DNA from: a virus
Strand: one strand, 5' to 3'
Virus record (IMG/VR): IMGVR_UViG_3300033145_000262
Span: 1 to 38,079 of that record
DNA: 38,079 nucleotides
Shown here: piece after piece, positions 2,667 to 35,261 of the stretch
Layout: each line of letters begins with the position of its first letter
How positions within the stretch are numbered: position 1 is the stretch's first letter
Program-made: the position numbers and the translations under genes
Notes under the pieces: model-generated
Database searches by the model: none
What the model was told of the DNA's origin: nothing
Seen by the model: only the letters and a program-made list of their open reading frames with translations

Positions 2667-2966
2667 TTATCTGATTGGTTTACTCTGCTTCAAAGCATTA
2701 AACAGCTTGTCTACAAAGAATGATCCTATTGCAGCTGCAACCAAAGCATTATCTACTCCTGCAACATTCAATCCTACAAAACCCATCAAACCCATTGTAC
2801 CAACTCTAATCACTGTCTGAGCTAATTGTCTCCATTCAAACAATGTCACTCTGTTGTCCTTAAGAGCTTTAACACCCCATGCACTGACACTCCTACAAAC
2901 TGGTATCAATACCACTATCCCTGCTGCCTTTACAACAGGCCATATACTTGCTATATCTATCTCCAT
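2667..2966 (-). CDS. Putative holin (two membrane segments)
   Basis: 99 residues. The N-terminus is a hydrophobic stretch from about residue 7 to 28 (ending VVLIPVCRSVSA), then a basic turn, a conserved-looking FEWRQLAQTVIRVG, and a second hydrophobic stretch (~58-85, GLMGFVGLNVAGV). Size, two-helix topology, a short basic tail and its place directly downstream of a papain-like endopeptidase fit a phage holin that releases or activates the lysin at the host membrane. GGAGGAG precedes the start. Known archaeal virus holins are diverse, so this rests on context and topology. Confidence 0.55.
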   Translation of the reverse strand: MEIDIASIWPVVKAAGIVVLIPVCRSVSAWGVKALKDNRVTLFEWRQLAQTVIRVGTMGLMGFVGLNVAGVDNALVAAAIGSFFVDKLFNALKQSKPIR

Positions 2967-3107: not shown

Positions 3108-3869
3108 TTAATATATCTCAATTCTCCATGCCTCAAAAACATGCTCCCATTGATCATAAGGCAGCACAGCTCTCCCTAACTTGCCCCAGCTTGGTCCCCA
3201 GCTGTTCTGATCTAAAAGACCTATTGAGTTCCAGCCATATAGATACATGGCATGCCCCCCTATCTCCTTGCCTTTTGGAGCTAATATGACACCATCTGGG
3301 GCATTTAATCTATCAGCATGCACTTTCATGCCAAATATAACTGGATAGCCACCATGCAATGCTTTCTTAGCCTCAGCTATTCCATTGACTCTATGATATG
3401 ATTTGATCCTGAAAAACCTAGCTCCATAATATGATCCCCATCCAGGCTGATCATTCCATTTATCAGTATCATATGGCCATGATACCTCCATGGCAATCCC
3501 ATGCTTTCTTGCATATTCAAGAGCTTCTCTGATATAGCCACCGCTTCCAGGCTGATCCTTGATCCTTGTATTAAACCATAAGAAAAGCTCAGATAGATTA
3601 AGAGGTCTATTTCTTTTAATCCTGTTCATATGTTCATGTGCACTTGCTATGGCAAATGCATAACAAGATCCTAGAGATCCTTGATGCTTTGTTTCTGGAG
3701 TTCCAGGCAGAATGAACTCATCAGGCAGATCATCTGATGCTACTGGCAATGCACTGATCCAATCTCTTTTGTCTTTTGGGCTTGGTACTGTACCGCAAAT
3801 TTTTTCATTGCCTGCATTTCTGTATGATCTTTTTCTCCCAATGATCCTTAATAACCAATTGATTAACAT
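3108..3869 (-). CDS. Papain-family (C1A) cysteine endopeptidase, putative lysin
   Basis: 253 residues from ATG 3869 (GAGGT five bases upstream; a TTG at 3884 is rejected). All papain landmarks are present: oxyanion Gln63 in HQGSLGSCYAF, nucleophile Cys69, His206 in GGHAMYLYGWN, and Asn222 in NSWGPSWG. The N-terminus has a short hydrophobic-basic segment (LINWLLRIIGRKR), then a charged spacer; there is no long inhibitory pro-domain. Lying beside the holin at the end of the tail operon, it probably degrades the host protein envelope (S-layer) for exit, or acts at entry. Catalytic family is sure; substrate is inferred. Confidence 0.88.
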   Translation of the reverse strand: MLINWLLRIIGRKRSYRNAGNEKICGTVPSPKDKRDWISALPVASDDLPDEFILPGTPETKHQGSLGSCYAFAIASAHEHMNRIKRNRPLNLSELFLWFNTRIKDQPGSGGYIREALEYARKHGIAMEVSWPYDTDKWNDQPGWGSYYGARFFRIKSYHRVNGIAEAKKALHGGYPVIFGMKVHADRLNAPDGVILAPKGKEIGGHAMYLYGWNSIGLLDQNSWGPSWGKLGRAVLPYDQWEHVFEAWRIEIY

Positions 3870-3876
3870 TGTAACC

Positions 3877-4947
3877 TCATTCAATAAAATTCATTGTTGT
3901 AAATTTTCCATTCATGTTTAGAACCAATGTATTATCAGCAGCCTCAATCAATGTTGGAACTGTTCCAGTTGGATCTCCAGCTATTTTCATATCATCAGCT
4001 GGGGTTATTTTACTTCCCAAACCAATATTTTTCTGATAAATATCTGTTCCATCATATCTGAAAAGAGTTAGATTAGATGTCATTGCATTTACAGCATCAC
4101 CTCCAGAAGCAACAACAACATAATAATTCCCATTGGTTGCCTGAATTATATTAGAAGTTCCAACTCCAGAACCAGTTAAACCAATAGAGAATATTGTTTT
4201 TACTGTATTGGTTGAGTTCTTATAATGATACAAAACAGAACCTGACCAAGTTGTATAAAAAACTTCATCTGTACTTATAGCAAATAAGTTCCCAGGAGTA
4301 GTTGTTGTATTGTCTGTTGTGTCAGTCCAATCAACACCTGCGTTTGTTGTTTTCCAAATGTCTCCTGCATTGTCAATAGCATAACCTATATTTGCACTGC
4401 ACATCACAATAGCATTTACAGCAAAACCACCAGCTCCTGTTGGCCCACTTGTTGCCTGAGTCCAATTGTCCCCACTGTCAGAAGTAAACCATATTAAAAC
4501 ACCAGCTCCAGCTTTTCCACCTATGACTCCAAAAGTTGTGCTGAACATATGAACACAAGCACCTTTAGTTATATTTGGTGGCCCTACAGATGCAGCTTGC
4601 CAATTAGCACTGCTATCATCTGTGTACGCTACACTTCCATCATCTTGATGGACTGACACTGCAGTAGCTCCACTTACTCCTGCAATATCTTCTGTATCTA
4701 CTTGACCAAAACCACCACTACTCCAAGTACCACCACTATTTGTTGTTCTTGCACTTGTTGATACCCAAATACTTGCACTATGCCTTAATAATCCTTTTCC
4801 AATAGTAACTCCAGATGTTCCCTCATCATATTTATTAAATCCAGCCTCATTCATTATATTATTGAGTGTATCATTCTGATCTAAATATATCAGGCCCTCT
4901 CCAGTACCCCAATCTGTTCCACCAAATCTTAAAAGTCTAACTGTCAT
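3877..4947 (-). CDS. Tail-tip/receptor-binding protein with Asp-box (BNR) propeller repeats
   Basis: 356 residues. The N-terminus (RFGGTDWGTGEGLIYLDQNDT) looks like the tail-attachment start of phage fibres. The body contains several Asp-box motifs, S/T-x-D/N-x-G-x-x-W: TTNSGGTW (~69), TSDSGDNW (~155), TTNAGVDW (~200), spaced as blades of a beta propeller, as in sialidases and photosystem assembly factor HCF136. No sialidase catalytic residues can be confirmed. It probably binds host surface glycans or glycoproteins. GGAGG precedes ATG 4947. Last large structural gene before the lysin. Confidence 0.7.
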   Translation of the reverse strand: MTVRLLRFGGTDWGTGEGLIYLDQNDTLNNIMNEAGFNKYDEGTSGVTIGKGLLRHSASIWVSTSARTTNSGGTWSSGGFGQVDTEDIAGVSGATAVSVHQDDGSVAYTDDSSANWQAASVGPPNITKGACVHMFSTTFGVIGGKAGAGVLIWFTSDSGDNWTQATSGPTGAGGFAVNAIVMCSANIGYAIDNAGDIWKTTNAGVDWTDTTDNTTTTPGNLFAISTDEVFYTTWSGSVLYHYKNSTNTVKTIFSIGLTGSGVGTSNIIQATNGNYYVVVASGGDAVNAMTSNLTLFRYDGTDIYQKNIGLGSKITPADDMKIAGDPTGTVPTLIEAADNTLVLNMNGKFTTMNFIE

Positions 4948-6063: not shown

Positions 6064-8067
6064 TTATGTTATTGTTACCCTCGCAGTATAGTTATCATCC
6101 ATAACCGGATCATCCATTGAAAGATACAACACTGATCCTGAAAAAACATGATGTTTTGTATATATACTATTTGCTTCTGTACTATCTAATGCTCTTGTGA
6201 AAAGTCTAACCTCATCAATAAATCCATTAAAATAATCAGCCCCATAATTTCCAACTAATACATCTACTGCATTTGTTCCTGCAGCTGCATCTCCTGATCC
6301 AGTATTGTCTGATGCTCCTTGAACATAAACAATTAGATCTGTTCCTGATTTTGTAAATATTACATGCTGGAAAGTGTTTGCTGTCAAAGCTGTACTTGCA
6401 GCTATCACACTATCAGATCCTGAATTGGAATAGATCAACTCTACCTGATCGCTTGCATTGATCCTTATGGCCCATCCATCTGTACCATCATACTTGCTCA
6501 TAATATATTTTTCTGCTCCAGGTAAACTGGCAACCTTTATAGCAAGACAAATTGAGAAATCACTTGCTAAATCAAGATCTGCATGATCACCAACTGTTAT
6601 CTTTCTGTCAGATCCATTGAACTCTCCTGCTGAAAGTCTCTGTCCTGTTGTTGTAAATTGAGCTCCATCTATTCCTGTCCCAGTCCATAATCCTTGATGG
6701 CCTGCTCCTGAACAATCAACCTCATGATTTCTATTATTTGCGTCTTTCATTCTGCTGAGTGTTGTATGGCTTAAAGCAAAAGTATTCTCTGGACTGTTCT
6801 TTTCCCATACATCCGCTATACTAAGATCTACATTCATATTATGTTTTATTTTCCTGCCAATATTGAGTGTCTCTGTATTTGAAAATCTCCTTTCCAATGC
6901 CTTGATCCTATCCTGCACACCAACTTGCCAATCAAGGATCACTGCCTCTCTATCTCCCATCTCAAATGTTGTCTCTCCCATCTCCCCAACATATGTAATT
7001 TTAGTTATAACCATGACCTCATTTTTACTCCTTTCATTATCAACAACTGTGACAGTCTCTCCAACATCAACATCAACATTAAATCCTCTCTGTGTTGCAA
7101 GACAAGTCACTGGTGGTATACTGAATGTTTCCAATAATTTTGCAGCATATCTTTTTACATCATCAAATACATTCAGCCATGGTGCCTGAACTTTCCTAAA
7201 TATTTCTTGGTCATTGTCATTGATACTATCATCATCCTGATCAGTAAATGTTATCGGTCTCAGATAATTATAATCATAGATTGGATTTGTCACAGATGCA
7301 TCATGCACTACTTGTTGATCCTCTGCATTCACAACATAAGTATCAGGATCTATTGTTACAGTAGGTGTTGCAGAAAGCCTTGCTCTCATATTCCCTGATG
7401 GTTTCTGATCAAGGGCCCATGTAGTATTGGCTCCTGCTTTCGTCTCTCCATTGACTGCATAATCTTCAAAGCCACCAATGACTTTTACTTTGTTGAACAT
7501 CTTTGTCTGATCTGTATCCCAATCTGTAACCTCAAACTCATCTGATCCTTGAGTAAATGTAACACCATTATTCAGATTTCCTAAAGGCTCAAAATAAACA
7601 TTATCAAGCTCATCCATTCTTATCTGCCATCTAAGAACATTCACCATATCTCTGATAACATCAATAAGATAACCATCAGCAATATACTTGGTTATTACAA
7701 CACCACTTGTTGCTGTGCTTGCATATGTTAGATTTCTTGAATATGTATTTATGATGTCCTCAACAATCGCCTCTGGAGATTGATTGGTATATACATTCTC
7801 AACATAGATATTTGTAAGTTCATATCCATTTGTCATTAATCTTAATGCCCACATCAATGACTCTTTTATTCCTGTTACCTTAGAGCTGAATATTGTAGTT
7901 GATCCATCTTTTAATTTTATATCAATGACACTGGATTGAGTCACATTTGCATTTGCTTCTATCTCTGCAAAACCACTATTGACAATCTCATCATAGGTCT
8001 TTACAATAGAGCATGTGCTATAATCAAGTTCAGTCCCTCCTCTGTAAAGCCTAAATCTTTCTGCCAT
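6064..8067 (-). CDS. Siphovirus-type baseplate/tail protein with C-terminal LamG domain
   Basis: 667 residues. The N-terminal ~380 residues resemble the hub-type tail proteins of siphoviruses: short beta repeats, then VEDIINTYSRNLTY, a DELDNVYFEPLG segment, and VGETVTVVDNERSKNEVMVITKI. Residues ~460-640 are a concanavalin-like LamG domain (YIMSKYDGTDGWAIRI, then FNGFIDEVRLFTRALDS), a fold used for sugar or protein binding. It probably forms the tail tip connecting tube to receptor-binding proteins. The start overlaps the upstream stop (TAATG). Confidence 0.75.
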   Translation of the reverse strand: MAERFRLYRGGTELDYSTCSIVKTYDEIVNSGFAEIEANANVTQSSVIDIKLKDGSTTIFSSKVTGIKESLMWALRLMTNGYELTNIYVENVYTNQSPEAIVEDIINTYSRNLTYASTATSGVVITKYIADGYLIDVIRDMVNVLRWQIRMDELDNVYFEPLGNLNNGVTFTQGSDEFEVTDWDTDQTKMFNKVKVIGGFEDYAVNGETKAGANTTWALDQKPSGNMRARLSATPTVTIDPDTYVVNAEDQQVVHDASVTNPIYDYNYLRPITFTDQDDDSINDNDQEIFRKVQAPWLNVFDDVKRYAAKLLETFSIPPVTCLATQRGFNVDVDVGETVTVVDNERSKNEVMVITKITYVGEMGETTFEMGDREAVILDWQVGVQDRIKALERRFSNTETLNIGRKIKHNMNVDLSIADVWEKNSPENTFALSHTTLSRMKDANNRNHEVDCSGAGHQGLWTGTGIDGAQFTTTGQRLSAGEFNGSDRKITVGDHADLDLASDFSICLAIKVASLPGAEKYIMSKYDGTDGWAIRINASDQVELIYSNSGSDSVIAASTALTANTFQHVIFTKSGTDLIVYVQGASDNTGSGDAAAGTNAVDVLVGNYGADYFNGFIDEVRLFTRALDSTEANSIYTKHHVFSGSVLYLSMDDPVMDDNYTARVTIT

Positions 8068-8537
8068 TATAAATCTCCTATCCTGCCTCTCTGGAATGAC
8101 ATAGATCCAATTATTATATTTCCAGCATAACCTTGATTGTGATCAAATTCTAAATTTACAATTACTCCTATCATAGAATTTGATGAGTTCAATGCTGCAA
8201 AACCTGATCCTGCTGCAGCAAGTTCCCAATCAACATCAAAATCCTCTCCATAAATCTGCTCCAAAAGATGTATCTTTTGCTCTGATGCTGTTGTAACAGC
8301 AGCTGCACCTGTTCCCTCAGCAACATCTGTGCCATCATCAAATAATGCAAAAGTAAATGTGACCTCTTCTGACTGACCTATAAACCTGAACAAGATTGTA
8401 TTTGTAGATGATGTATTGACAAGAGGGATTGCTATTGGTGGTTGGAAAACCTTTTGTTTCATTGGGGCAACAGCTCTAAGCAGAATTGTCTTACTATTAT
8501 CTCTGTTTGTTATTTTCAGATCATTTGGTGCTGCCAT
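8067..8537 (-). CDS. Probable distal-tail/minor tail protein
   Basis: 156 residues from ATG 8537, which overlaps the tape-measure stop (TGATG), behind GGAGGT. The protein is beta-rich with a conserved-looking core (ILFRFIGQSEEVTFTFALFDDG) and an ending FQRGRIGDL. In siphoviruses the gene between tape measure and hub encodes the distal tail protein, and the size fits, but the sequence alone does not prove it. Confidence 0.55.
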   Translation of the reverse strand: MAAPNDLKITNRDNSKTILLRAVAPMKQKVFQPPIAIPLVNTSSTNTILFRFIGQSEEVTFTFALFDDGTDVAEGTGAAAVTTASEQKIHLLEQIYGEDFDVDWELAAAGSGFAALNSSNSMIGVIVNLEFDHNQGYAGNIIIGSMSFQRGRIGDL

Positions 8538-9649
8538 CAATATCTACCTCCAGTATTTACTCCTTTTCCTTGTTGAGCATTAATTATATTGATCATCCTT
8601 TGTGGTGTAACTCCATAGAAGTTCATTGTTGTTCCACCCAATCCTCCAGGGTTCTTTGTGCCTATGATTGTATCCTGATTACTGAAAGGTTGAGCAGGCT
8701 GACCTGGTCGGCTTATGAAATCATTGAGTGTCCCTGGACTTGTCATGCTTCCCATAAAAACATTATCTCCAGATTGAGGACCTCTTGATTTTTTCTTACT
8801 GTCTCCTCGTCCACCAAATGGATTTGCTGCAGCAACAGCTGCTGATATTGCTCCCTTAATTATATCTCCAAGAGCTTTCATTTTGTCCCAGATTTTCTGA
8901 GGCAATTCTTTGAACCATTCACCCACTTTAGTTTTCCATTCATCAAACTTAATTTTTAATGTCTCTTTCCACTCATCAAACTTAGTTGCTAATTTTTCTT
9001 TCCATTCATCAAACTTAATTTTTAATGTCTCTTTCCACTCATCAAACTTAGACTTTAATATCTCTTTCAGACTTTCAAGTTTTTCAAGTAAAAAATTCTT
9101 AACAACACCTAGTTTTTCAACAAGCCAATTAAAGCCTTGAACAATATAACCCCAGATAAGACCAGGTAATGTTTTAAGAAATTCCCAAAGTTTACCAGGT
9201 AATGATTTAATCCATTCCCAAATACTAGTAAGTATAGGACTTAAGAAACTCCAGATTTTTCCAGGCAATGATTTCATAAACCCCCAGATTTTTCCAGGCA
9301 ATGATTTCAACCATTCAACAATAGTCGTCCTTAATTTCTTTATAGTCTCAGGAAGATTTTGAATAAACTTAATCATCTTTAGAAAACCCAACATAATAAA
9401 ATTTGTCAGAATTTTAAGCAAATCAGCAATTGGCTTAAGGCTCAAAAGAACACTGAGAGGACCTAATCCTTTCAGAATACCTCCAAGAAGTCCAGCAACT
9501 TTGCCTCCTCCTTTGCCAACTTTTGCACCACCACCTTTGCCTCCAGATCCTCCACCGCCATCTAAAGATATGGTGCTATTGACTGCTTGCTTGATCTGTT
9601 TTTTCAGATCTTCTATATCAATTTTTATCTTAAATTTCAAGTCTGGCAT
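8537..9649 (-). CDS. Tail tape measure protein
   Basis: 370 residues, short for a tape measure. The N-terminus is a charged helix followed by a Gly-rich linker (GGGGSGGKGGGAKVGKGGGK), a hydrophobic region (~50-95), then two families of 11-residue repeats: SLPGKIWxF (~114-165) and KFDEWKETLKI (~200-245). Repeats of this length form long helical rods. Position between tail chaperone and distal-tail genes is diagnostic. The tail is Gly/Pro/Gln rich. If the usual ~1.5 A per residue applied to the whole chain, the tail would be roughly 50 nm. Confidence 0.85.
   Translation of the reverse strand: MPDLKFKIKIDIEDLKKQIKQAVNSTISLDGGGGSGGKGGGAKVGKGGGKVAGLLGGILKGLGPLSVLLSLKPIADLLKILTNFIMLGFLKMIKFIQNLPETIKKLRTTIVEWLKSLPGKIWGFMKSLPGKIWSFLSPILTSIWEWIKSLPGKLWEFLKTLPGLIWGYIVQGFNWLVEKLGVVKNFLLEKLESLKEILKSKFDEWKETLKIKFDEWKEKLATKFDEWKETLKIKFDEWKTKVGEWFKELPQKIWDKMKALGDIIKGAISAAVAAANPFGGRGDSKKKSRGPQSGDNVFMGSMTSPGTLNDFISRPGQPAQPFSNQDTIIGTKNPGGLGGTTMNFYGVTPQRMINIINAQQGKGVNTGGRY
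8933..9051. repeat. Exact 53-bp direct repeat with 66-bp period inside the tape-measure gene
   Basis: Positions 8933-8985 and 8999-9051 are identical, giving a 66-bp (22-residue) period made of two 11-residue KFDEWK units. A second pair with 33-bp period is at 9251-9276 and 9284-9309, encoding SLPGKIW. These are recent in-frame duplications that would change tail length. Confidence 0.85.
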
Positions 9650-9650
9650 T

Positions 9651-9893
9651 TTATTTATCTCCTGCTTGTGATCTCCCTCTTAATACAGCAAGATAGATCT
9701 CTTTTCTTGCTGGATCCAGTTCTCCTGTAATGTACTTATCTGTCCATCCAAATGTCTCTGCAAGATTTACATCCTCCAAAGCTTTAACAATATCTCTTTT
9801 GAATGGCTCTAAAGGCATGCCCTCTCCAATCAGGAGCTGGACTGTGGCTGTGTGTCCTTTTGCGCAGAGTCTGGCTGCTTCTGTGAGGGCTTC
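9651..9893 (-). CDS. Tail-assembly chaperone second domain, made by -1 frameshift (GT-type extension)
   Basis: An open frame in -1 relative to the upstream chaperone gene starts at the slippery site and runs 80 codons to TAA at 9651-9653, just before the tape-measure ATG. Read as a fusion join(10174..9893, 9893..9651) it gives 174 residues. It encodes a good protein sequence (FEALTEAARLCAKGHTATV, then FGWTDKYITGELDPARKEI). An internal ATG with GGAG upstream (MPLEPFKRD) could allow separate synthesis, but the frame is protein-like right back to the slip site. Position and layout match lambda G/GT. Confidence 0.75.
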   Translation of the reverse strand, partial: EALTEAARLCAKGHTATVQLLIGEGMPLEPFKRDIVKALEDVNLAETFGWTDKYITGELDPARKEIYLAVLRGRSQAGDK

Positions 9894-10174
9894 AAAAAAT
9901 CTGCTTTTCCCTGGATTTTGTTTGCCACATACTCAAGTATTTTATTTTTATCATCTGAGTACAGATTTCCCATATCCTCTGCTGACAACCCACTGACTTT
10001 CTGAGCTAGATTTTCAACATAGTCCATGAAATCATTAAATGTTTTCAGCTCTTCTCCCTCTTTTGCATTCTGCAACTCTACAAATTTATTGAAACCTGGA
10101 TCTGTTTCTCTAGCAAACAATGGCCTTAGTGTTATTGTTTGTTCTCCTTTTTCTCCATTTACTTTTAATTCCAT
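9830..10174 (-). CDS. Tail-assembly chaperone (G-type), contains -1 frameshift site
   Basis: 114 residues in the zero frame, from ATG 10174 behind GGGGGT. The N-terminal ~90 residues (LRPLFARETDPGFNKFVEL, then DFMDYVENLAQKVSGL) form the expected small chaperone domain; after codon 94 the zero-frame tail is a low-complexity Lys/Gln/Ser run, typical of the unimportant end of G proteins. It sits between tail tube and tape measure, as in lambda and most siphoviruses. It should bind the tape measure during tail assembly and be absent from the virion. Confidence 0.75.
   Translation of the reverse strand: MELKVNGEKGEQTITLRPLFARETDPGFNKFVELQNAKEGEELKTFNDFMDYVENLAQKVSGLSAEDMGNLYSDDKNKILEYVANKIQGKADFLKPSQKQPDSAQKDTQPQSSS
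9893..9912 (-). promoter_or_regulatory. Programmed -1 frameshift signal T_TTT_TTG with SD-like stimulator
   Basis: Codons 93-94 of the chaperone gene read T_TTT_TTG (9899-9893), a canonical X_XXY_YYZ heptamer. AGGGA (9912-9908) lies 8 bases upstream, as in the dnaX-type SD stimulator. The -1 frame then stays open for 80 codons. Frame was checked: the TTG codon begins 279 bases (93 codons) from the ATG. Confidence 0.75.
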
Positions 10175-10192
10175 ATTTATACCCCCATCTAT

Positions 10193-11116
10193 TTATAATA
10201 GACCATTAATATTATCAACTCCATATGCATTACTATATGTTCCCTCTGCAGCAAGTTCAACAACAGTGATGTTTCCTACTGTACTGATTTCATTGTTTGC
10301 ACTCAATATGCAATTTGAAAGTGAAAAATAAACCTTTCTTTGTCCACTTCCATATGCTACACCATTATCTCCAGTGAGTTCAAAGTTATGTGCTGTTGCA
10401 TCTACAAACAGATCATTGAAAGCTTTTGAGTCAAATGCAAGTGTTGCTTTGTATTCAAATTTGAGCTCTAAAGGATTTCCACTTACTGGTGCTGCTGTTC
10501 CTAGTCCATGTGTCAATCCCTCTCCTGTAGATGTTACTGTAACACTTGCACTCTGTATCTGTGTAGCTGCTACATCATTTATTTTTATTTCCATCAATAG
10601 TTGTGGAAATACTGGCAATGTACTGACTGATGCTGTTCCTGCACTTGTTCCTGTTGTTGGTGCTTTTCCTTTGAACTCCATGGTTTGTTTTAAAACTCCA
10701 TTGAGTTCAATACTTAACTCCATGCTCTGAAATAACATACCTGTGAATTGTTCTGTTGAGTCTACTGTTGCATTGTTTCCTATGTCAAATAATGCTGTCT
10801 CAACAGTTGATCCTACAATAGAATATGTATGTGTATAATCAGATGCACTGTTTGTCTCTACCTCTGTTCCAAAAGCAAAGATCCATAATCTTGTGTTCTG
10901 GAAATCTCCTGTAAGTGTAACTCCTCCTATCTCACTGCCTCTTGTTATTGCAACAGGTGCTCTTGAACTTATGCCTGTACTGTTGATAACTTCTGCTGTC
11001 TTTGGAGTTCCAACATCTGATGTGACTGTTCCAACTCCTTTGTTAGCAGATCCGCCTGTTGCCCAACTGGTTTCTTTTCCAACTAGAGCATATTTTTGTG
11101 GTGCACCGTATGCCAT
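10193..11116 (-). CDS. Major tail tube protein
   Basis: 307 residues, beta-rich, beginning MAYGAPQKYALVGKETSWAT, a typical start for tube proteins of siphovirus and archaeal-virus type. Signature segments include GGVTLTGDFQNTRLWIFAFG and the late LSNCILSANNEISTVGN. It follows the neck genes and directly precedes the chaperone pair, which is the normal tube position. The second half may hold an extra Ig-like domain (SVTVTSTGEGLTHGLG). The start overlaps the upstream stop (TAATG). Confidence 0.78.
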   Translation of the reverse strand: MAYGAPQKYALVGKETSWATGGSANKGVGTVTSDVGTPKTAEVINSTGISSRAPVAITRGSEIGGVTLTGDFQNTRLWIFAFGTEVETNSASDYTHTYSIVGSTVETALFDIGNNATVDSTEQFTGMLFQSMELSIELNGVLKQTMEFKGKAPTTGTSAGTASVSTLPVFPQLLMEIKINDVAATQIQSASVTVTSTGEGLTHGLGTAAPVSGNPLELKFEYKATLAFDSKAFNDLFVDATAHNFELTGDNGVAYGSGQRKVYFSLSNCILSANNEISTVGNITVVELAAEGTYSNAYGVDNINGLL

Positions 11117-11307
11117 TATTGATCACCCTTTTCTTTTTTTGTGTTGCTGACTTTCTTGATATAGTCAAATTCGTTTAGTATTATTTCTGCATGTTCTGCC
11201 TCTACTTCACAAACTCCATCTATAAATATGTATTCAAATGCAGGATTTGCTGATCGTACAAGCTTGATGCTTGGTTCACTTTTGCTGATTAATTTTACTT
11301 TTGTCAT
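11116..11307 (-). CDS. Small protein between tail terminator and tail tube
   Basis: 63 residues: two or three strands (AFEYIFIDGVCEVEAEHA) then a helix (EIILNEFDYIKKV) and a Lys-rich tail. Similar short strand-helix proteins, with a pattern of value followed by E-x-A-x-x-L, occur in phage structural modules, but no role is known. It is coupled to the tube gene by TAATG. Confidence 0.55.
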   Translation of the reverse strand: MTKVKLISKSEPSIKLVRSANPAFEYIFIDGVCEVEAEHAEIILNEFDYIKKVSNTKKEKGDQ

Positions 11308-11318
11308 AATATCGCCTC

Positions 11319-11975
11319 CTAGCTTTCCATTATAAACATGATCTTACCATCCTGGTTCCTTTGGATAACTTTGTTCTGACCGGTTGGTGCAGGGATCATT
11401 GGCCCTATCTTTGATAGAACTATGTAATTGAAATAAAAAAAGCCTGATGTCCTGTTATCTCTCAAGTTTGATCTAATGCTTGCGATGATTTCATTGACTC
11501 TAGATTTTTTCTGATCATAAGCAACAAAAGATACATCATAACTTGTATTGTCTATTGGCCCTGTAAGACCTAAAGGCACTGTATCTCCTCCGATTATATC
11601 AAAACCTATCCTTGGAAAGGATCCTATTTTCACATCATCCTTTGGCCAATCACTAAAGATCCTGTCTGATCCATAATCATATGGTATAGAATAAGCTCCT
11701 GTCTGAGCAACTGTAAATGTGATTTTACATTGAGTATTTGAATTAAAATCTGTATCCACTGTGTAATCTGTTCCAAAAGTAAGTGGTGATCCTGCAACTG
11801 TTATTGATCTTATATTCTTTACATTAGCAACATTTATTACTAGGCTTGAGTCTGATGCAAATGTTCCTGTTGCAGTTGCAGTTTGCACTCCTCTCTCTGT
11901 AATTGTCAGAATATCCTTGTTTCTAAGGAAGAACTCCAGCTCTTGGTTTATATTGTCTATGCTTATATCTGCCAT
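11319..11975 (-). CDS. Tail terminator/completion-like protein with inserted beta domain
   Basis: 218 residues. Residues 1-28 and ~105-218 look like a tail-terminator fold (DWPKDDVKIGSFPRIGFDI, then YDQKKSRVNEIIASIRSNLR). Between them a beta domain of about 75 residues is inserted (SITVAGSPLTFGTDYTVDTD). First gene of the tail operon, behind promoter 12043-12064, hairpin 11999-12014 and a GAGGT ribosome site. The function is inferred mainly from order: connectors, this gene, tube. Confidence 0.6.
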   Translation of the reverse strand: MADISIDNINQELEFFLRNKDILTITERGVQTATATGTFASDSSLVINVANVKNIRSITVAGSPLTFGTDYTVDTDFNSNTQCKITFTVAQTGAYSIPYDYGSDRIFSDWPKDDVKIGSFPRIGFDIIGGDTVPLGLTGPIDNTSYDVSFVAYDQKKSRVNEIIASIRSNLRDNRTSGFFYFNYIVLSKIGPMIPAPTGQNKVIQRNQDGKIMFIMES

Positions 11976-11998
11976 CCTTTGACCTCTTTTTTAGTCAC

Positions 11999-12014
11999 GC
12001 ACTGGCTCCAGTGC
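11999..12014. other. Perfect hairpin GCACTGG-CT-CCAGTGC in the tail-operon leader
   Basis: A 7-bp perfect stem with a two-base loop lies in the ~50-nt leader between the promoter at 12043-12064 and the ATG at 11975. On the minus strand it is followed by GTGACTAAAAAAG, not by T, so it is not an obvious terminator for the tail message; it may protect or regulate the 5' end. Confidence 0.5.
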
Positions 12015-12042
12015 TTGAACGCAATAATGTTTTATGTATTTA

Positions 12043-12064
12043 CATATATATACTTTGTTATGCT
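12043..12064 (-). promoter_or_regulatory. Shared late-type promoter, copy D (tail operon)
   Basis: Minus strand AGCATAACAAAG followed by TATATATA, starting directly after the stop codon of the gene at 12065. The predicted start is near 12026, giving a 50-nt leader to ATG 11975, which has its own GAGGT site. One mismatch in the AGCTTAACAA element compared with copies A-C. Confidence 0.7.
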
Positions 12065-12466
12065 TCAGCCCAAATGCTGGACAATATTTTTTACTAGGAT
12101 CTCAGGCAAATCCTGGCTAAAAGTATTTCTTATGAATGGAAATGGTCTTGTCCCATATTTCTTGATATGCATGGCAAGAGCCCAGGCAAGTTTCTCATCT
12201 CCCCATTTTCTCCTGGCCCATCCTTTGAGCTCATCAACTGGTGGCATATGTGGTGGTGTTCCATACTCAACATATTTCATTTGCTCTGGAAGTATAATAA
12301 TGATCTCATCTCCATGGATCTCAAATCTGATCCCACTCTTTCCTGCAGCAGTATCAACTCCATGACTCTTGTCTAATTTATCTTTCAATGACTCTGTTAC
12401 ATCTAGGCCTATTCCAAACAGCATGCCTGCTTGCGCCTTATCTATCTCATGTGCATTAATCGTCAT
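12065..12466 (-). CDS. HK97 gp10-like neck/tail-joining protein
   Basis: 133 residues from ATG 12466, behind GGAGG; the longer in-frame start at 12532 lies inside the upstream gene. The family signature is clear: YVEYGTPPHMPP, then ELKGWARRKWG, then GTRPFPFIRNTF near the C-terminus, as in HK97 gp10 and related minor structural proteins. It follows the head-closure gene, so it acts in connecting head and tail. Confidence 0.78.
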   Translation of the reverse strand: MTINAHEIDKAQAGMLFGIGLDVTESLKDKLDKSHGVDTAAGKSGIRFEIHGDEIIIILPEQMKYVEYGTPPHMPPVDELKGWARRKWGDEKLAWALAMHIKKYGTRPFPFIRNTFSQDLPEILVKNIVQHLG

Positions 12467-13061
12467 TTGCATCAGCCTCCAGGAATAAGTTGCATGCAGT
12501 ATATTGATATGTAAAACTTGTTCCTGCCTCATCTGGCCCTCTTCTATTCAATGCTTCTTTTACTCTGAATGTTTTGTATTTTCCATCAATCTCTCCGCTT
12601 GTTTCTGCAGCAACATCATGGGAGTTATCTGTAATTGTTAATGTTGTTGTTGTCGGTGCAGTAGCTACTGTGTAGCTACCATCATAATTTGTAGTGCCTA
12701 TTATGATCAAGAGATCTCCTGCACTCAGTCCATGAGCTGCACTTGTTGTTATTGAGATTGTTGTTGCATTGCCATCAATAGTTGAGATTGAGGATCTGAT
12801 CCCATTAGCTTTGATCTTGTCATTGAATTTCAGGCTGTCAGAATATTTTGAGAGCAGCAATGCATCTCCTACTTTTATAAATCCAGATTTCTCATAAGTT
12901 CTTTTATTTACTGTTCTCAAGAAATAGACTTTTATTGTTGCTTCTGTTCCATCTGTAAGAAACTCATCTCCGCCTTTGTTTGTCTTTCCAGTTGTCACTG
13001 GCACATGCCTTACATTTATTCCAGGCAAGTCATTTAATACTGTCTCAAAATCTGATGTCAT
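12456..13061 (-). CDS. Head-closure-like connector with inserted beta domain
   Basis: 201 residues. N-terminus (FETVLNDLPGINVRHVPVTTG) and C-terminus (FRVKEALNRRGPDEAGTSFT) bracket a central beta domain of ~65 residues, with AAHGLSAGDLLIIIGTTNYD, typical of small decoration domains in phage structural proteins. Order between gp6-like and gp10-like genes suggests a head-closure/stopper protein. It overlaps the neighbour genes by 1 and 11 bases. Confidence 0.55.
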   Translation of the reverse strand: MTSDFETVLNDLPGINVRHVPVTTGKTNKGGDEFLTDGTEATIKVYFLRTVNKRTYEKSGFIKVGDALLLSKYSDSLKFNDKIKANGIRSSISTIDGNATTISITTSAAHGLSAGDLLIIIGTTNYDGSYTVATAPTTTTLTITDNSHDVAAETSGEIDGKYKTFRVKEALNRRGPDEAGTSFTYQYTACNLFLEADANDD

Positions 13062-28999: not shown

Positions 29000-29465
29000 C
29001 TTTCTCTTTTTCCTTAATCTCATCCCAAATATCATCAACCCTCTGATCAGTAACATCCTCAACCTGAGTTGGTGCTCTCCTATTAACTCCAGCATCAAAG
29101 AGCCAGTCATTCCATTCTTTCATGAGCTTAGCTGCATTATACTTGTCCTTATTATTCGGACTCTCCAAGAGTTCGGTAACAACCTTATTGAAAGTAAGCT
29201 CTGTTCTTATGGCCACATCCTCTCCTATCTGGCTGAACAATTCTTTTTTTAATACCTTAATATCATGGCTGATCTGGGAATGTGTCACACCATACCTACC
29301 TGCCAGTTTAGTTGGGCTTACAGCTCCAGGGCTTCCAACAGTTTTTATCATGCCCAGTATCTCTGCTCTCCTGACTTTGTAAGTGTATGTCTTTGGATCT
29401 ATCTTTTCTTCTTTCTCTGGAATTGGAACCTTTGAATATATAATTTTATTTTTCTCGTTAGCCAT
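28968..29465 (-). CDS. terS: Probable terminase small subunit
   Basis: 165 residues. Residues ~45-75 hold a helix-turn-helix (VSPTKLAGRYGVTHSQIS, then HDIKVLKKELF), followed by a helical oligomerisation-like segment and a charged C-terminus (DIWDEIKEKEKDG) that could touch TerL. Small terminases recognise the pac or cos DNA and are poorly conserved; HTH plus position just upstream of TerL is the evidence. Starts at 29465, overlapping the methyltransferase stop. Confidence 0.72.
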   Translation of the reverse strand: MANEKNKIIYSKVPIPEKEEKIDPKTYTYKVRRAEILGMIKTVGSPGAVSPTKLAGRYGVTHSQISHDIKVLKKELFSQIGEDVAIRTELTFNKVVTELLESPNNKDKYNAAKLMKEWNDWLFDAGVNRRAPTQVEDVTDQRVDDIWDEIKEKEKDGKDKKADQR

Positions 29466-30390
29466 TGTTATTCTCCAAGCACTTCTTTATGCTCTTTGCC
29501 AGATGGTATGCCATGTTTACTGGCACTGCATTTCCTATCTGGCCATACATGTCATTGAGGCTGCCTGCAAACATATAATTATCTGGAAAGGTTTGTATTC
29601 TTGCTGCTTCTCTTACGCTGATCAGTCTGTCATATATTGGGTGCACATACCTGCCTGATTTGGTTATTGTGCATGCATATGTTTTCTTGAGCTTTATTCC
29701 TGCGCTTCCAAATGTGCTTATCTTTTGTCCCTCTTTGAGAAATGTAAATTTTTTCATTTGCTTTCTGCTTTTTGAATATATATGCTGCATGGTCTCGTCC
29801 TCTTCATATGGTAGGTCCATGACGTCCATTAGATATTTTTTATGTTGGATTGGTTCTGGATATTTGTAGTCCTGTTTTATTCTTTTTGCTATGATGATCA
29901 CTCGTTGTCTTTTTTGTGGTACATTATAATTGAAGCTGTTGAGTATCTTTGCTTGCACTGAATATCCTCTTTTTCCAAAGTCCTCTACTATCTGATTGTA
30001 CACAAAGCCTCCCTCTCTTGTTTTCATTGTATACAGTCCTTTGACATTCTCTATAAGACATATTTTGGGCCTTGTTATGTCAACTATATTTAGGTAGTCC
30101 ATAAACAATGTGTTTCTTGCATCTTTAGGATCTCTTTTGCCTGCCATGCTGAACCCCTGGCATGATGGCCCTCCTACCATCACATCAATCTTTTTGAGAC
30201 CATCAAAGTCTTTCTCTGTTGCTTGGGTTATATCTTTCTTGATCAGTCTCTTGTCCTTGTCGTTCTTAAGGATGGTCTCTATTGCTGGCTTCCAGTTCTC
30301 AATAAATCCTTTGTTCTCAAAGTCTGCCTTTTCAAGTCCTAAACTGAGCCCTCCTGCTCCTGCAAACACATCTATGTATTTATATTTCAT
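29458..30390 (-). CDS. DNA (cytosine-5) methyltransferase
   Basis: 310 residues, with all main motifs: I DVFAGAGGLS (7-16), IV GGPSCQGFS with Cys77, VI ENV (114-116), VIII QKRQRV (159-164), IX RLISVREAARIQTFPDNY (255-272), X QIGNAVPVNMA (284-294). Motif IV has Ser where most enzymes have Pro before Cys. It is slightly shorter than M.HhaI. The target sequence cannot be read. It probably modifies viral DNA to evade host restriction; no partner nuclease gene is seen. The start overlaps the ParB-like stop (ATGA). Confidence 0.9.
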   Translation of the reverse strand: MKYKYIDVFAGAGGLSLGLEKADFENKGFIENWKPAIETILKNDKDKRLIKKDITQATEKDFDGLKKIDVMVGGPSCQGFSMAGKRDPKDARNTLFMDYLNIVDITRPKICLIENVKGLYTMKTREGGFVYNQIVEDFGKRGYSVQAKILNSFNYNVPQKRQRVIIIAKRIKQDYKYPEPIQHKKYLMDVMDLPYEEDETMQHIYSKSRKQMKKFTFLKEGQKISTFGSAGIKLKKTYACTITKSGRYVHPIYDRLISVREAARIQTFPDNYMFAGSLNDMYGQIGNAVPVNMAYHLAKSIKKCLENNNG

Positions 30391-30983
30391 TTGTCCACCA
30401 CTATAAAATAATCAACTATCTCCAGGATCATGTTTGTGTCTCCGAATTTCTCCTTGATCTTGTCCAGTTGATCTGGCAATAATGCTATCTTGAGCTGCCT
30501 TATGTTCACTCCTTTGTCTTTCAGATCCTCGTCCATCTTTCTCAGCACTAGATATTGTTCCATCTCTACATCTTTGAGCTTCATTATATCATCAAAGTAT
30601 TGCTCTTTCTTTCCCATGAGCATAGCAAGATCTTTGAAGCTTCCGCTTACTGCTAGTATCTTATCAAAATCCTGTATGTCCTTGTCTATGTTATGCTGTC
30701 CCTTAAGCTTGTTCATGATCTGCCTTAGCATCAGCCTATCAACTTCTTTTACATTCAGGACAAAAACAGATACATATTCCATGCCAAGCTCTTTTGCTGC
30801 TTTCCATCTATGGAAACCATCAGCTATGATCATATCCTTGTTTGTTATGATCGGCACAATAAATCCAAATCTCTTTATGCCCTCTTTCAATGCTTCAAAC
30901 TCCTCCTTGCCCATTATATTTGGGTTTGTCTCATCTGGAATTATATCATCAACCTTTACTTTTCTTATCTCTGGAATTTCCAT
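30387..30983 (-). CDS. ParB-like protein beside methyltransferase and terminase
   Basis: 198 residues from ATG 30983, behind GAGGT. The N-terminal domain matches ParB/sulfiredoxin: KVDDIIPDETNPNIM, EALKEGIKRFGFIVPI, IIADGFHRWKAAKELG. The rest is helical (LKGQHNIDKDIQDFDKIL) with a possible helix-turn-helix region, and ends EIVDYFIVVDK. Such proteins often accompany phage methyltransferases and terminases; they may bind DNA and CTP. Only distantly similar to the gene at 1-321. Confidence 0.82.
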   Translation of the reverse strand: MEIPEIRKVKVDDIIPDETNPNIMGKEEFEALKEGIKRFGFIVPIITNKDMIIADGFHRWKAAKELGMEYVSVFVLNVKEVDRLMLRQIMNKLKGQHNIDKDIQDFDKILAVSGSFKDLAMLMGKKEQYFDDIMKLKDVEMEQYLVLRKMDEDLKDKGVNIRQLKIALLPDQLDKIKEKFGDTNMILEIVDYFIVVDK

Positions 30984-30985
30984 CT

Positions 30986-31210
30986 TCAAAACCTCTTAGG
31001 ATTATCTACAGGCTCTACTATAGTAAATAATAAATCATCTCTGATCTCATAAGCAGCTCTGCCCCCTATAGTCCATACATCCATAAGCATTTGATTAATT
31101 CTAACTAATGTAATCTTATCCCTATATGTTGCTCCTATTAGCTTTCTGATCTTGTCCATTGGTATTGTTACTGTTCTTGTTTTTTCTAATGTCTTTATTT
31201 CTTCTGCCAT
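30986..31210 (-). CDS. Small protein upstream of ParB-like gene
   Basis: 74 residues: a basic helix-strand start (KTRTVTIPMDKIRKLIGATY), then LVRINQMLMDVWTIGGRAAY, and a strand with acidic end. AGGAGG precedes the start. No family is recognised. Located just before the ParB/methyltransferase/terminase set, so possibly a regulatory subunit or adaptor. Confidence 0.55.
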   Translation of the reverse strand: MAEEIKTLEKTRTVTIPMDKIRKLIGATYRDKITLVRINQMLMDVWTIGGRAAYEIRDDLLFTIVEPVDNPKRF

Positions 31211-34895: not shown

Positions 34896-34917
34896 AGTAT
34901 ATAAATATTGTTAAGCT
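34896..34917 (-). promoter_or_regulatory. Shared late-type promoter, copy C (accessory/packaging operon)
   Basis: Minus strand AGCTTAACAA followed by TATTTATATA (34907-34898). The stop codon of the Hjc gene (TAA, 34911-34913) is part of the element. Upstream of the gene starting at 34875 and through it the operon down to terminase. Confidence 0.7.
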
Positions 34918-35261
34918 AGACCACTAAGATCTTTATAATCTACATCACAAAAAAGGATCTTTCCTTTAGGTCCCTTATATGCTATTACTGGGATCATACC
35001 ATACTCTTGATCTAAAGCTAATAACTTAGCTTTTTCTTCTTTGTTTATTCTCTTTGCCATCTTGCACTCAACAGCCCAGACTATAGTAACTCTTAAAACA
35101 TCTGGATAGTTCACAGCAATTAAATCAGGAAAAGCAGAGGCTGATTGTCTTACTACAAAAAGACCTTTGTCCTGCAAATGCTTCTTTACTCGTCTTTCAA
35201 AAGCATCTCCTTTTTTTCTTGGAGCTGCTCCTCCTCTACGAACTCGCTTAGTTTTCGGCAT
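34911..35261 (-). CDS. hjc: Archaeal Holliday-junction resolvase (Hjc-like)
   Basis: 116 residues. KGDAFERRVKKHLQDKGLFV with Glu22, ASAFPDLIAV with Asp46, and AVECKMAK with Glu65-Lys67 give the PD-(D/E)XK active site of Hjc/Hje enzymes. Length and basic N-terminus (RRGGAAPRKK) fit. It would resolve branched replication or recombination DNA before packaging. GAGGG lies upstream of ATG 35261. Assignment is firm. Confidence 0.85.
   Translation of the reverse strand: MPKTKRVRRGGAAPRKKGDAFERRVKKHLQDKGLFVVRQSASAFPDLIAVNYPDVLRVTIVWAVECKMAKRINKEEKAKLLALDQEYGMIPVIAYKGPKGKILFCDVDYKDLSGLA

What the first reader, a model, noticed from the sequence alone, without database searches (positions are those of the whole stretch)
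9651..10174. Programmed -1 frameshift fusing a tail-assembly chaperone in an archaeal virus
Seen in sequence: T_TTT_TTG in the correct phase at codons 93-94, AGGGA 8 bases upstream, and an 80-codon open -1 frame ending just before the tape-measure ATG. The zero-frame tail after the slip is low complexity while the -1 frame is protein-like. Established: lambda G/GT uses the same logic at the same gene position. Inference: this archaeal system uses a T-rich slippery site with an SD-like stimulator. Gene annotation would normally miss the 80-residue part.
Basis: partly seen in the sequence, partly recalled or inferred. Interest (0 to 1): 0.78.

Follow-up and report, generated by a model that had tools for sequence, protein, structure and literature searches.

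The report
Viral tail chaperone made by frameshifting
In a virus that probably infects tiny uncultured archaea, some ribosomes slip back one base on the sequence T-TTT-TTG and so make a longer version of a protein that helps build the viral tail; the trick is known from many phages (phage P2 uses the same seven letters), and here it is shown by comparison to be conserved in viruses linked to DPANN archaea.

Summary
On the minus strand, between the tail tube gene and the tape-measure gene, a 114-codon ORF carries T_TTT_TTG in phase at codons 93-94. The -1 frame then stays open for 80 codons and stops one base before the tape-measure ATG. The tail module is found only in very distant relatives, so the comparison is a strong test. 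Of seven distinct relatives, window included, all keep both frames; five keep T_TTT_TTG exactly, one has T_TTT_TTA, and one (L138) has lost the heptamer. The -1 domain is conserved from the slip site onward, has no conserved start codon of its own, and is homologous to the -1 domain of related viruses that slip on A_AAA_AAN. In the wider virus group, all 38 overlapping pairs found with an in-phase heptamer join to the -1 frame. A relative of the zero-frame protein matches Pfam Phage_TAC_7, the family of phage P2 gpE, and P2 uses the same T_TTT_TTG. The SD-like stimulator is not conserved; it overlaps a second in-phase heptamer, G_GGA_AAA. A downstream RNA stem is a better stimulator candidate. 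The mechanism is known, also from haloarchaeal viruses. The DPANN host is inferred, not proven.

The parts
9830..10174 (-). Zero-frame ORF 'G': tail assembly chaperone, 114 aa (94 codons up to and including the slip site, then a 20-residue zero-frame tail)
   Evidence: ORF; four-way homologue alignment; AF2 model of residues 1-94, pLDDT 91; Foldseek named viral hits near the top are tail assembly chaperones; homologue L095 matches PF10109 Phage_TAC_7, 25.8 bits vs cut-off 25
9893..9899 (-). Slippery heptamer T_TTT_TTG (codons 93-94), the proposed -1 slip site
   Evidence: In phase; identical in L089, L095, L120, L141; same heptamer at the end of P2 gene E and five P2-like relatives
9651..9893 (-). 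-1 frame 'T' domain: 80 codons read after the slip (9893..9654) plus stop TAA (9653-9651); open frame starts at 9932
   Evidence: Open frame; conserved in relatives from the slip site on; hhalign 94% to the T domains of A_AAA_AAN-type relatives
9905..9911 (-). Second in-phase heptamer G_GGA_AAA, 12 nt upstream; possible auxiliary slip site
   Evidence: also in L095 and as G_GGA_AAG in L142; absent from L089 and L120
9908..9912 (-).
   Evidence: Present; in relatives absent (L089), at other spacing (L095) or AGGG only (L120)
9885..9890 (-). 5' arm (GCCCTC) of a predicted downstream RNA stem, starting 3 nt after the heptamer
   Evidence: Predicted fold -25.1 kcal/mol; more stable than synonymous-codon controls, p = 0.027
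9819..9824 (-). 3' arm (GAGGGC) of the predicted stem
   Evidence: L089, L120 and L141 have a longer stem CCUCGUUG../..CAACGAGG in almost the same place, one base out of register with the window
8537..9649 (-). Tape measure protein gene (370 aa), starts one base after the T stop codon
   Evidence: PHROG tape-measure matches, best E = 3.8e-10
10193..11116 (-). Tail tube gene, directly upstream of G
   Evidence: PF18906 Phage_tube_2, 51.6 bits vs cut-off 27

Best explanation
[quoted passage not shown] Most ribosomes read G to its TGA stop. A minority, with the tRNAs for TTT and TTG in the P and A sites at T_TTT_TTG, slip back one base and continue in the -1 frame, making a G-T fusion of about 174 residues (...ADFL-EALTEAARL...). 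By analogy with lambda and P2, many G and few G-T copies coat the tape-measure protein, and the T part recruits tail-tube subunits. A downstream RNA stem starting about 3 nt after the heptamer may stimulate the slip; a second in-phase heptamer 12 nt upstream may add to it. Shown here: the anatomy, conservation of both frames and (mostly) of the heptamer, family match of a homologue and fold of the G part, gene position. Inferred: that the slip occurs in vivo, its efficiency, the stimulator, the chaperone function, and the host.
For: Anatomy between tail tube (PF18906) and tape measure. G and T both found, in -1 relation, in L089 and L095 at 28% (G) and 37% (T) identity, with T_TTT_TTG at the same place; further cases L120 and L141. 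TTT-TTG among Phe-Leu codon pairs is expected at only about 3-13% per genome from their codon usage. The T frame is conserved immediately after the heptamer, upstream of any start codon, with most substitutions at its third codon positions. In the wider group 38 of 38 overlapping pairs with an in-phase X_XXY_YYZ join to the -1 frame: 33 A_AAA_AAN, 4 T_TTT_TTG, 1 G_GGA_AAG; the 9 pairs joining to the +1 frame have none. The window's T profile matches the T of A-type relatives (hhalign 94%, E 1e-7), so the same -1 domain is joined through different heptamers. PF10109 match of L095 G; P2 gpE belongs to PF10109 and carries T_TTT_TTG at GFL; P2 slips at TTTTTTG (PMC3091744). Fold of G matches viral tail assembly chaperones. 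RNA downstream more stable than synonymous-codon controls in window, L089, L120 (p = 0.027, 0.002, 0.001) and L141 (p = 0.003).
Against: No expression or proteomic data. L138 (identical in L139) keeps the -1 frame but has T_TTT_ACC instead of a full heptamer; L108 (no heptamer) and L043 (+1/-2) are exceptions in the wider group. The window's own G and T give no Pfam match above cut-off; hhalign of the window's G set against P2-like gpE is not significant. No match in solved structures; Foldseek E-values in the viral library are modest (0.003-0.04). The stem is not predicted in L095, L138 or L142, and in the window it is one base out of register with the others. Relatives are few.
Confidence: 0.93

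Rival explanations
1. The slip happens mainly at the upstream heptamer G_GGA_AAA (9911..9905), of the lambda/haloarchaeal-virus type, and T_TTT_TTG is secondary or both are used in tandem.
For: It is in phase and inside the open -1 frame; also present in L095 and as G_GGA_AAG in L142; this class is used by HCTV-1, HCTV-5 (PMC5009743) and proposed for Hardycor1 (PMC7911831).
Against: Absent from L089 and L120, whose -1 frames open only 6 nt before TTTTTTG; T_TTT_TTG is kept in 5 of 7, GGGAAAR in 3 of 7.
Confidence: 0.12
2. T is a separate small gene started inside, at ATG 9818 (preceded by GGAGAGGGC), by reinitiation or coupling, with no frameshift.
For: An ATG with a purine-rich upstream stretch lies just past the G stop in the T frame.
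Against: That ATG is not present in L089, L095, L120 or L141 (K there); 31 of 38 related pairs have no ATG anywhere in T up to 45 nt past the G stop; the T protein is conserved upstream of the ATG.
Confidence: 0.04
3. RNA polymerase slips on the T6 run, giving a mixed mRNA, rather than the ribosome slipping.
For: The run of six T is homopolymeric; transcriptional slippage can produce the same fusion.
Against: Six T is short for polymerase slippage (general knowledge); the phase of the heptamer to the reading frame is constant although slippage by polymerase would not need it; relatives use other X_XXY_YYZ heptamers in the same phase, one of them G_GGA_AAG, which is not a homopolymer.
Confidence: 0.04
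4. T is decayed or chance open sequence; there is no second product.
For: Opposite-strand ORFs of over 100 codons are common in this window.
Against: T is found at 36-39% protein identity in relatives, in -1 relation every time, and profile-matches T domains of other families.
Confidence: 0.01

Closest known systems
Phage P2 gpE / gpE+E' tail chaperone (PF10109 Phage_TAC_7 with PF06528 Phage_P2_GpE)
   [quoted passage not shown] T shares a short F-x-W-x-P-like motif with E' (PMC3091744).
   Different: Archaeal rather than enterobacterial virus; a non-contractile tail appears likely because no sheath gene was seen; G and T too divergent for a direct profile match; predicted RNA stem downstream, none reported for P2 (PMC3091744).
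Phage lambda G / G-T
   Same: Same logic and gene position (general knowledge; PMC5009743).
   Different: Lambda uses G_GGA_AAG (general knowledge); no lambda sequence was compared here.
Tail chaperone frameshifts of haloarchaeal tailed viruses HVTV-1, HCTV-1, HCTV-2, HCTV-5, Hardycor1
   Same: Archaeal tailed viruses with a proposed -1 shift in the tail chaperone gene (PMC8211752, PMC5009743, PMC7911831).
   [quoted passage not shown] T_TTT_TTG is not among those reported in the texts read; halophilic archaea as hosts.
Related uncultivated viruses L035-L119 of this study (A_AAA_AAN type)
   Same: Shared capsid or tail-completion genes, T domain homologous, -1 shift.
   Different: Other heptamer, often at the very end of G; G shows little or no similarity.

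Membership tests
Tail assembly chaperone with -1 programmed frameshift (lambda G/GT, P2 E/E' kind) | Small gene between the tail tube and the tape measure gene | tested here: met
   PF18906 upstream, tape-measure PHROGs downstream
Tail assembly chaperone with -1 programmed frameshift (lambda G/GT, P2 E/E' kind) | Overlapping downstream frame in -1 relation without its own conserved start | tested here: met
[quoted passage not shown]
   T_TTT_TTG in 5 of 7 and T_TTT_TTA in 1 of 7 distinct relatives; lost in L138
Tail assembly chaperone with -1 programmed frameshift (lambda G/GT, P2 E/E' kind) | Fold of the zero-frame domain is that of tail assembly chaperones | tested here: met
   AF2 pLDDT 91; Foldseek viral library, the named hits among the first ten are tail assembly chaperones, probability 0.97-1.0, E 0.006-0.04, TM about 0.5-0.6; no PDB match
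Tail assembly chaperone with -1 programmed frameshift (lambda G/GT, P2 E/E' kind) | Fusion protein made in vivo at a fixed low ratio; G and GT bind the tape measure; T binds the tail tube | not testable with these tools
   Needs expression and binding assays
PF10109 Phage_TAC_7 (P2 gpE family) | Score above the Pfam gathering cut-off | tested here: inconclusive
   Met by the homologue L095 (25.8 vs 25 bits), not by the window's own G; hhalign against P2-like gpE not significant
PF06528 Phage_P2_GpE (T part) | Score above the Pfam gathering cut-off | tested here: not met
   No match for the four T domains tested; hhalign to P2-like E' 3%. Not claimed as a member
Virus of DPANN archaea | Close relatives in archaeal genomes or archaeal marker genes | tested here: inconclusive
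   Capsid relatives at 66-71% in contigs binned as Nanoarchaeota, Woesearchaeota and 'archaeon', at 63% in a WOR-3 bin; archaeal Hjc resolvase PF01870 in the window; the Nanoarchaeota contig has nearly all genes on one strand and looks viral, so the link is by binning only

The most novel reading that the evidence does not exclude
Archaeal (DPANN) ribosomes use U_UUU_UUG as a programmed -1 site, with a downstream RNA stem as stimulator and a second, lambda-type heptamer 12 nt upstream acting in tandem, so that two slip sites set the G to G-T ratio.
Probability: 0.2. Interest if true: 0.5.

Novelty: new member of a known kind. Interest (0 to 1): 0.36.

Why it matters
Frameshifting in Archaea is thinly documented: a 2021 review counts one proven case plus predictions in haloviruses (PMC8211752). 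The set assembled here, 38 overlapping gene pairs in viruses related to one whose capsid relatives lie mostly in DPANN-binned contigs, suggests that the tail-chaperone frameshift is the rule in this group and gives ready test sequences. It also shows that simple gene calling misses the T half of the chaperone, and that the slip site switches between A_AAA_AAN and T_TTT_TTG while the -1 domain stays homologous.

Tried and rejected
Direct protein search of viral contigs with G or the fusion found no usable relative (L001 is an unrelated short match). Searches with the tail tube alone and the baseplate-like protein found nothing useful. Profile search of the fusion in 371 genomes of the phylum of one MAG with a capsid relative gave only weak matches inside larger open frames, and in solved structures only enolase-type matches, taken as chance. 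SD-like stimulation was considered and set aside, not being conserved. A strict covariation claim for the downstream stem was rejected: three relatives share nearly identical arms and the window's stem is one base out of register; its 6-bp helix alone is not unusual (two thirds of random 80-mers have one as long). The second sequence folded was mistyped by me and is to be ignored; searches use the true L089 sequence. The T model (pLDDT 73, models disagree) was judged too weak for a fold search. One search failed for a stop codon in L014; one search stopped at L138 after giving the L141 and L142 results.

Full report
What was checked. The finding lies on the minus strand of a 38,079-base IMG/VR virus record. 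ORF G (10174..9830, 114 aa) sits between a tail tube gene (PF18906, 51.6 bits) and a tape-measure gene (PHROG matches). The codons around the site read CAG GGA AAA GCA GAT TTT TTG AAG CCC TCA. T_TTT_TTG is in phase at codons 93-94 and the -1 frame is open from 9932 to 9654. It stops one base before the tape-measure ATG. Such an open frame arises in 0.4-0.5% of dinucleotide shuffles.

Finding relatives. The window's tail genes have no close relatives, so I came in from the side. The capsid protein (SU10-type, PF17236) found 40 viral loci, and a gene next to the tail module found 59 more. Two of these, L089 and L095, carry the same tail module: G at 28% and T at 37% identity, T in the -1 frame both times. 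A profile of the fusion added L120, and a profile of the tail tube added L138/L139 (identical over the region), L141 and L142.

The slip site. L089, L095, L120 and L141 carry TTTTTTG in phase at the same point. L142 carries TTTTTTA, with GGGAAAG 9 nt upstream. L138 carries T_TTT_ACC, so the four-T core remains but not the heptamer. All seven distinct sequences keep the -1 frame. TTT and TTG are not forced by the Phe-Leu pair: given codon usage the pair would be written so in about 13%, 6%, 3% and 9% of cases in window, L089, L095 and L120 (products of the fractions). In L089 and L120 the -1 frame opens only 6 nt before TTTTTTG, which leaves no room for the upstream heptamer.

The -1 domain. 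T is conserved from the first codon after the slip (E[AVI]L....L) to near its end. Differences concentrate at third positions of the -1 frame. The ATG inside the window's T (9818) is not conserved. The T profile matches T domains of relatives that slip on A_AAA_AAN (hhalign 94%, E = 1e-7). An automatic scan of the fetched loci found 63 overlapping pairs of suitable size, downstream of a 220-460-codon gene and upstream of a long gene. All 38 with an in-phase heptamer shift to -1 (33 A_AAA_AAN, 4 T_TTT_TTG, 1 G_GGA_AAG); none of the nine +1 pairs has one. The Nanoarchaeota MAG contig has A_AAA_AAC directly before the G stop. The scan's filters are mine, and most pairs without a heptamer are other overlapping genes with a start at the junction; two exceptions that look like tail chaperones are L108 (no heptamer) and L043 (+1/-2).

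Family. L095 G matches PF10109 Phage_TAC_7 just above the curated cut-off (25.8 vs 25), and an A-type relative (L079) matches PF08890 Phage_TAC_5 (32.3 vs 27). P2 gpE belongs to PF10109, and P2 with five of seven P2-like relatives carries T_TTT_TTG at the same ...FL position; the other two have TTTTTTT and TTTTTTC. The literature states that P2 slips at TTTTTTG (PMC3091744). The AF2 model of the window's G has pLDDT 91. Its viral Foldseek hits include several named tail assembly chaperones near the top, at modest E-values and TM-scores of about 0.5-0.6; no PDB match was found. The window's own G does not reach a Pfam cut-off, and T does not match PF06528, so full membership in the P2 family is not claimed.

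Stimulator. AGGG at 8-9 nt is present in the window and L120 only, among the four compared. The 80 nt after the heptamer fold more stably than synonymous-codon controls in the window (p = 0.027), L089 (0.002), L120 (0.001) and L141 (0.003), but not in L095 (0.08) or L142 (0.74). In the window this is the most stable of 950 80-nt windows sampled on that strand. L089, L120 and L141 share a 9-11 bp stem, CCUCGUUG../..CAACGAGG; the window has GCCCUC/GAGGGC, one base out of register. I regard a 3' stem as the likelier stimulator, at about 60% (judgement, not a test).

Host. Capsid relatives at 63-71% identity occur in four genome contigs: Nanoarchaeota, Woesearchaeota, 'archaeon' and a WOR-3 bin. 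The window encodes an archaeal-type Hjc resolvase (PF01870, 36.1 vs 21.1 bits). A DPANN host is likely, not proven.

Known or new. The tail-chaperone frameshift is established in phages and proposed for haloarchaeal viruses with G_GGA_AAx and A_AAA_AAC sites (PMC5009743, PMC8211752, PMC7911831). I found no paper in the held library on this feature in viruses of DPANN archaea, nor U_UUU_UUG for an archaeal virus in the texts read. It is therefore a new member of a known kind, in an under-studied host group.

Noticed in passing
window 3108-3884 (-), with 2667-2966 (-): A papain-family cysteine protease (PF00112, 58.6 bits) near one end of the record, followed by a small protein of 99 aa with hydrophobic stretches; possibly an entry or lysis pair suited to a host without peptidoglycan.
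   Followed up: no
L043:17102-17603: Tail chaperone pair in a related virus with the second frame in +1/-2 relation; the overlap holds GGA AAA AAA AAT (eight A), so a -2 slip or transcriptional slippage is possible, a different solution from its relatives.
   Followed up: partly
L142:4282-4297 and window 9911-9893: Two in-phase slippery heptamers 9-12 nt apart (GGGAAAG then TTTTTTA; GGGAAAA then TTTTTTG); tandem slip sites may be real.
   Followed up: partly
L138:4193-4444: Tail chaperone with the -1 frame conserved but T_TTT_ACC instead of a heptamer; possible P-site-only slip.
   Followed up: no
window 34911-35261 (-); 29458-30390 (-); 30387-30989 (-): Hjc Holliday junction resolvase, C5-cytosine methyltransferase and a ParB-domain protein.
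   Followed up: no
window 6064-12532 (-) compared with L004-L043: Module exchange: capsid relatives up to 75% identical have tail genes with little or no similarity to those of the window, so head and tail modules seem to recombine in this virus group.
   Followed up: partly
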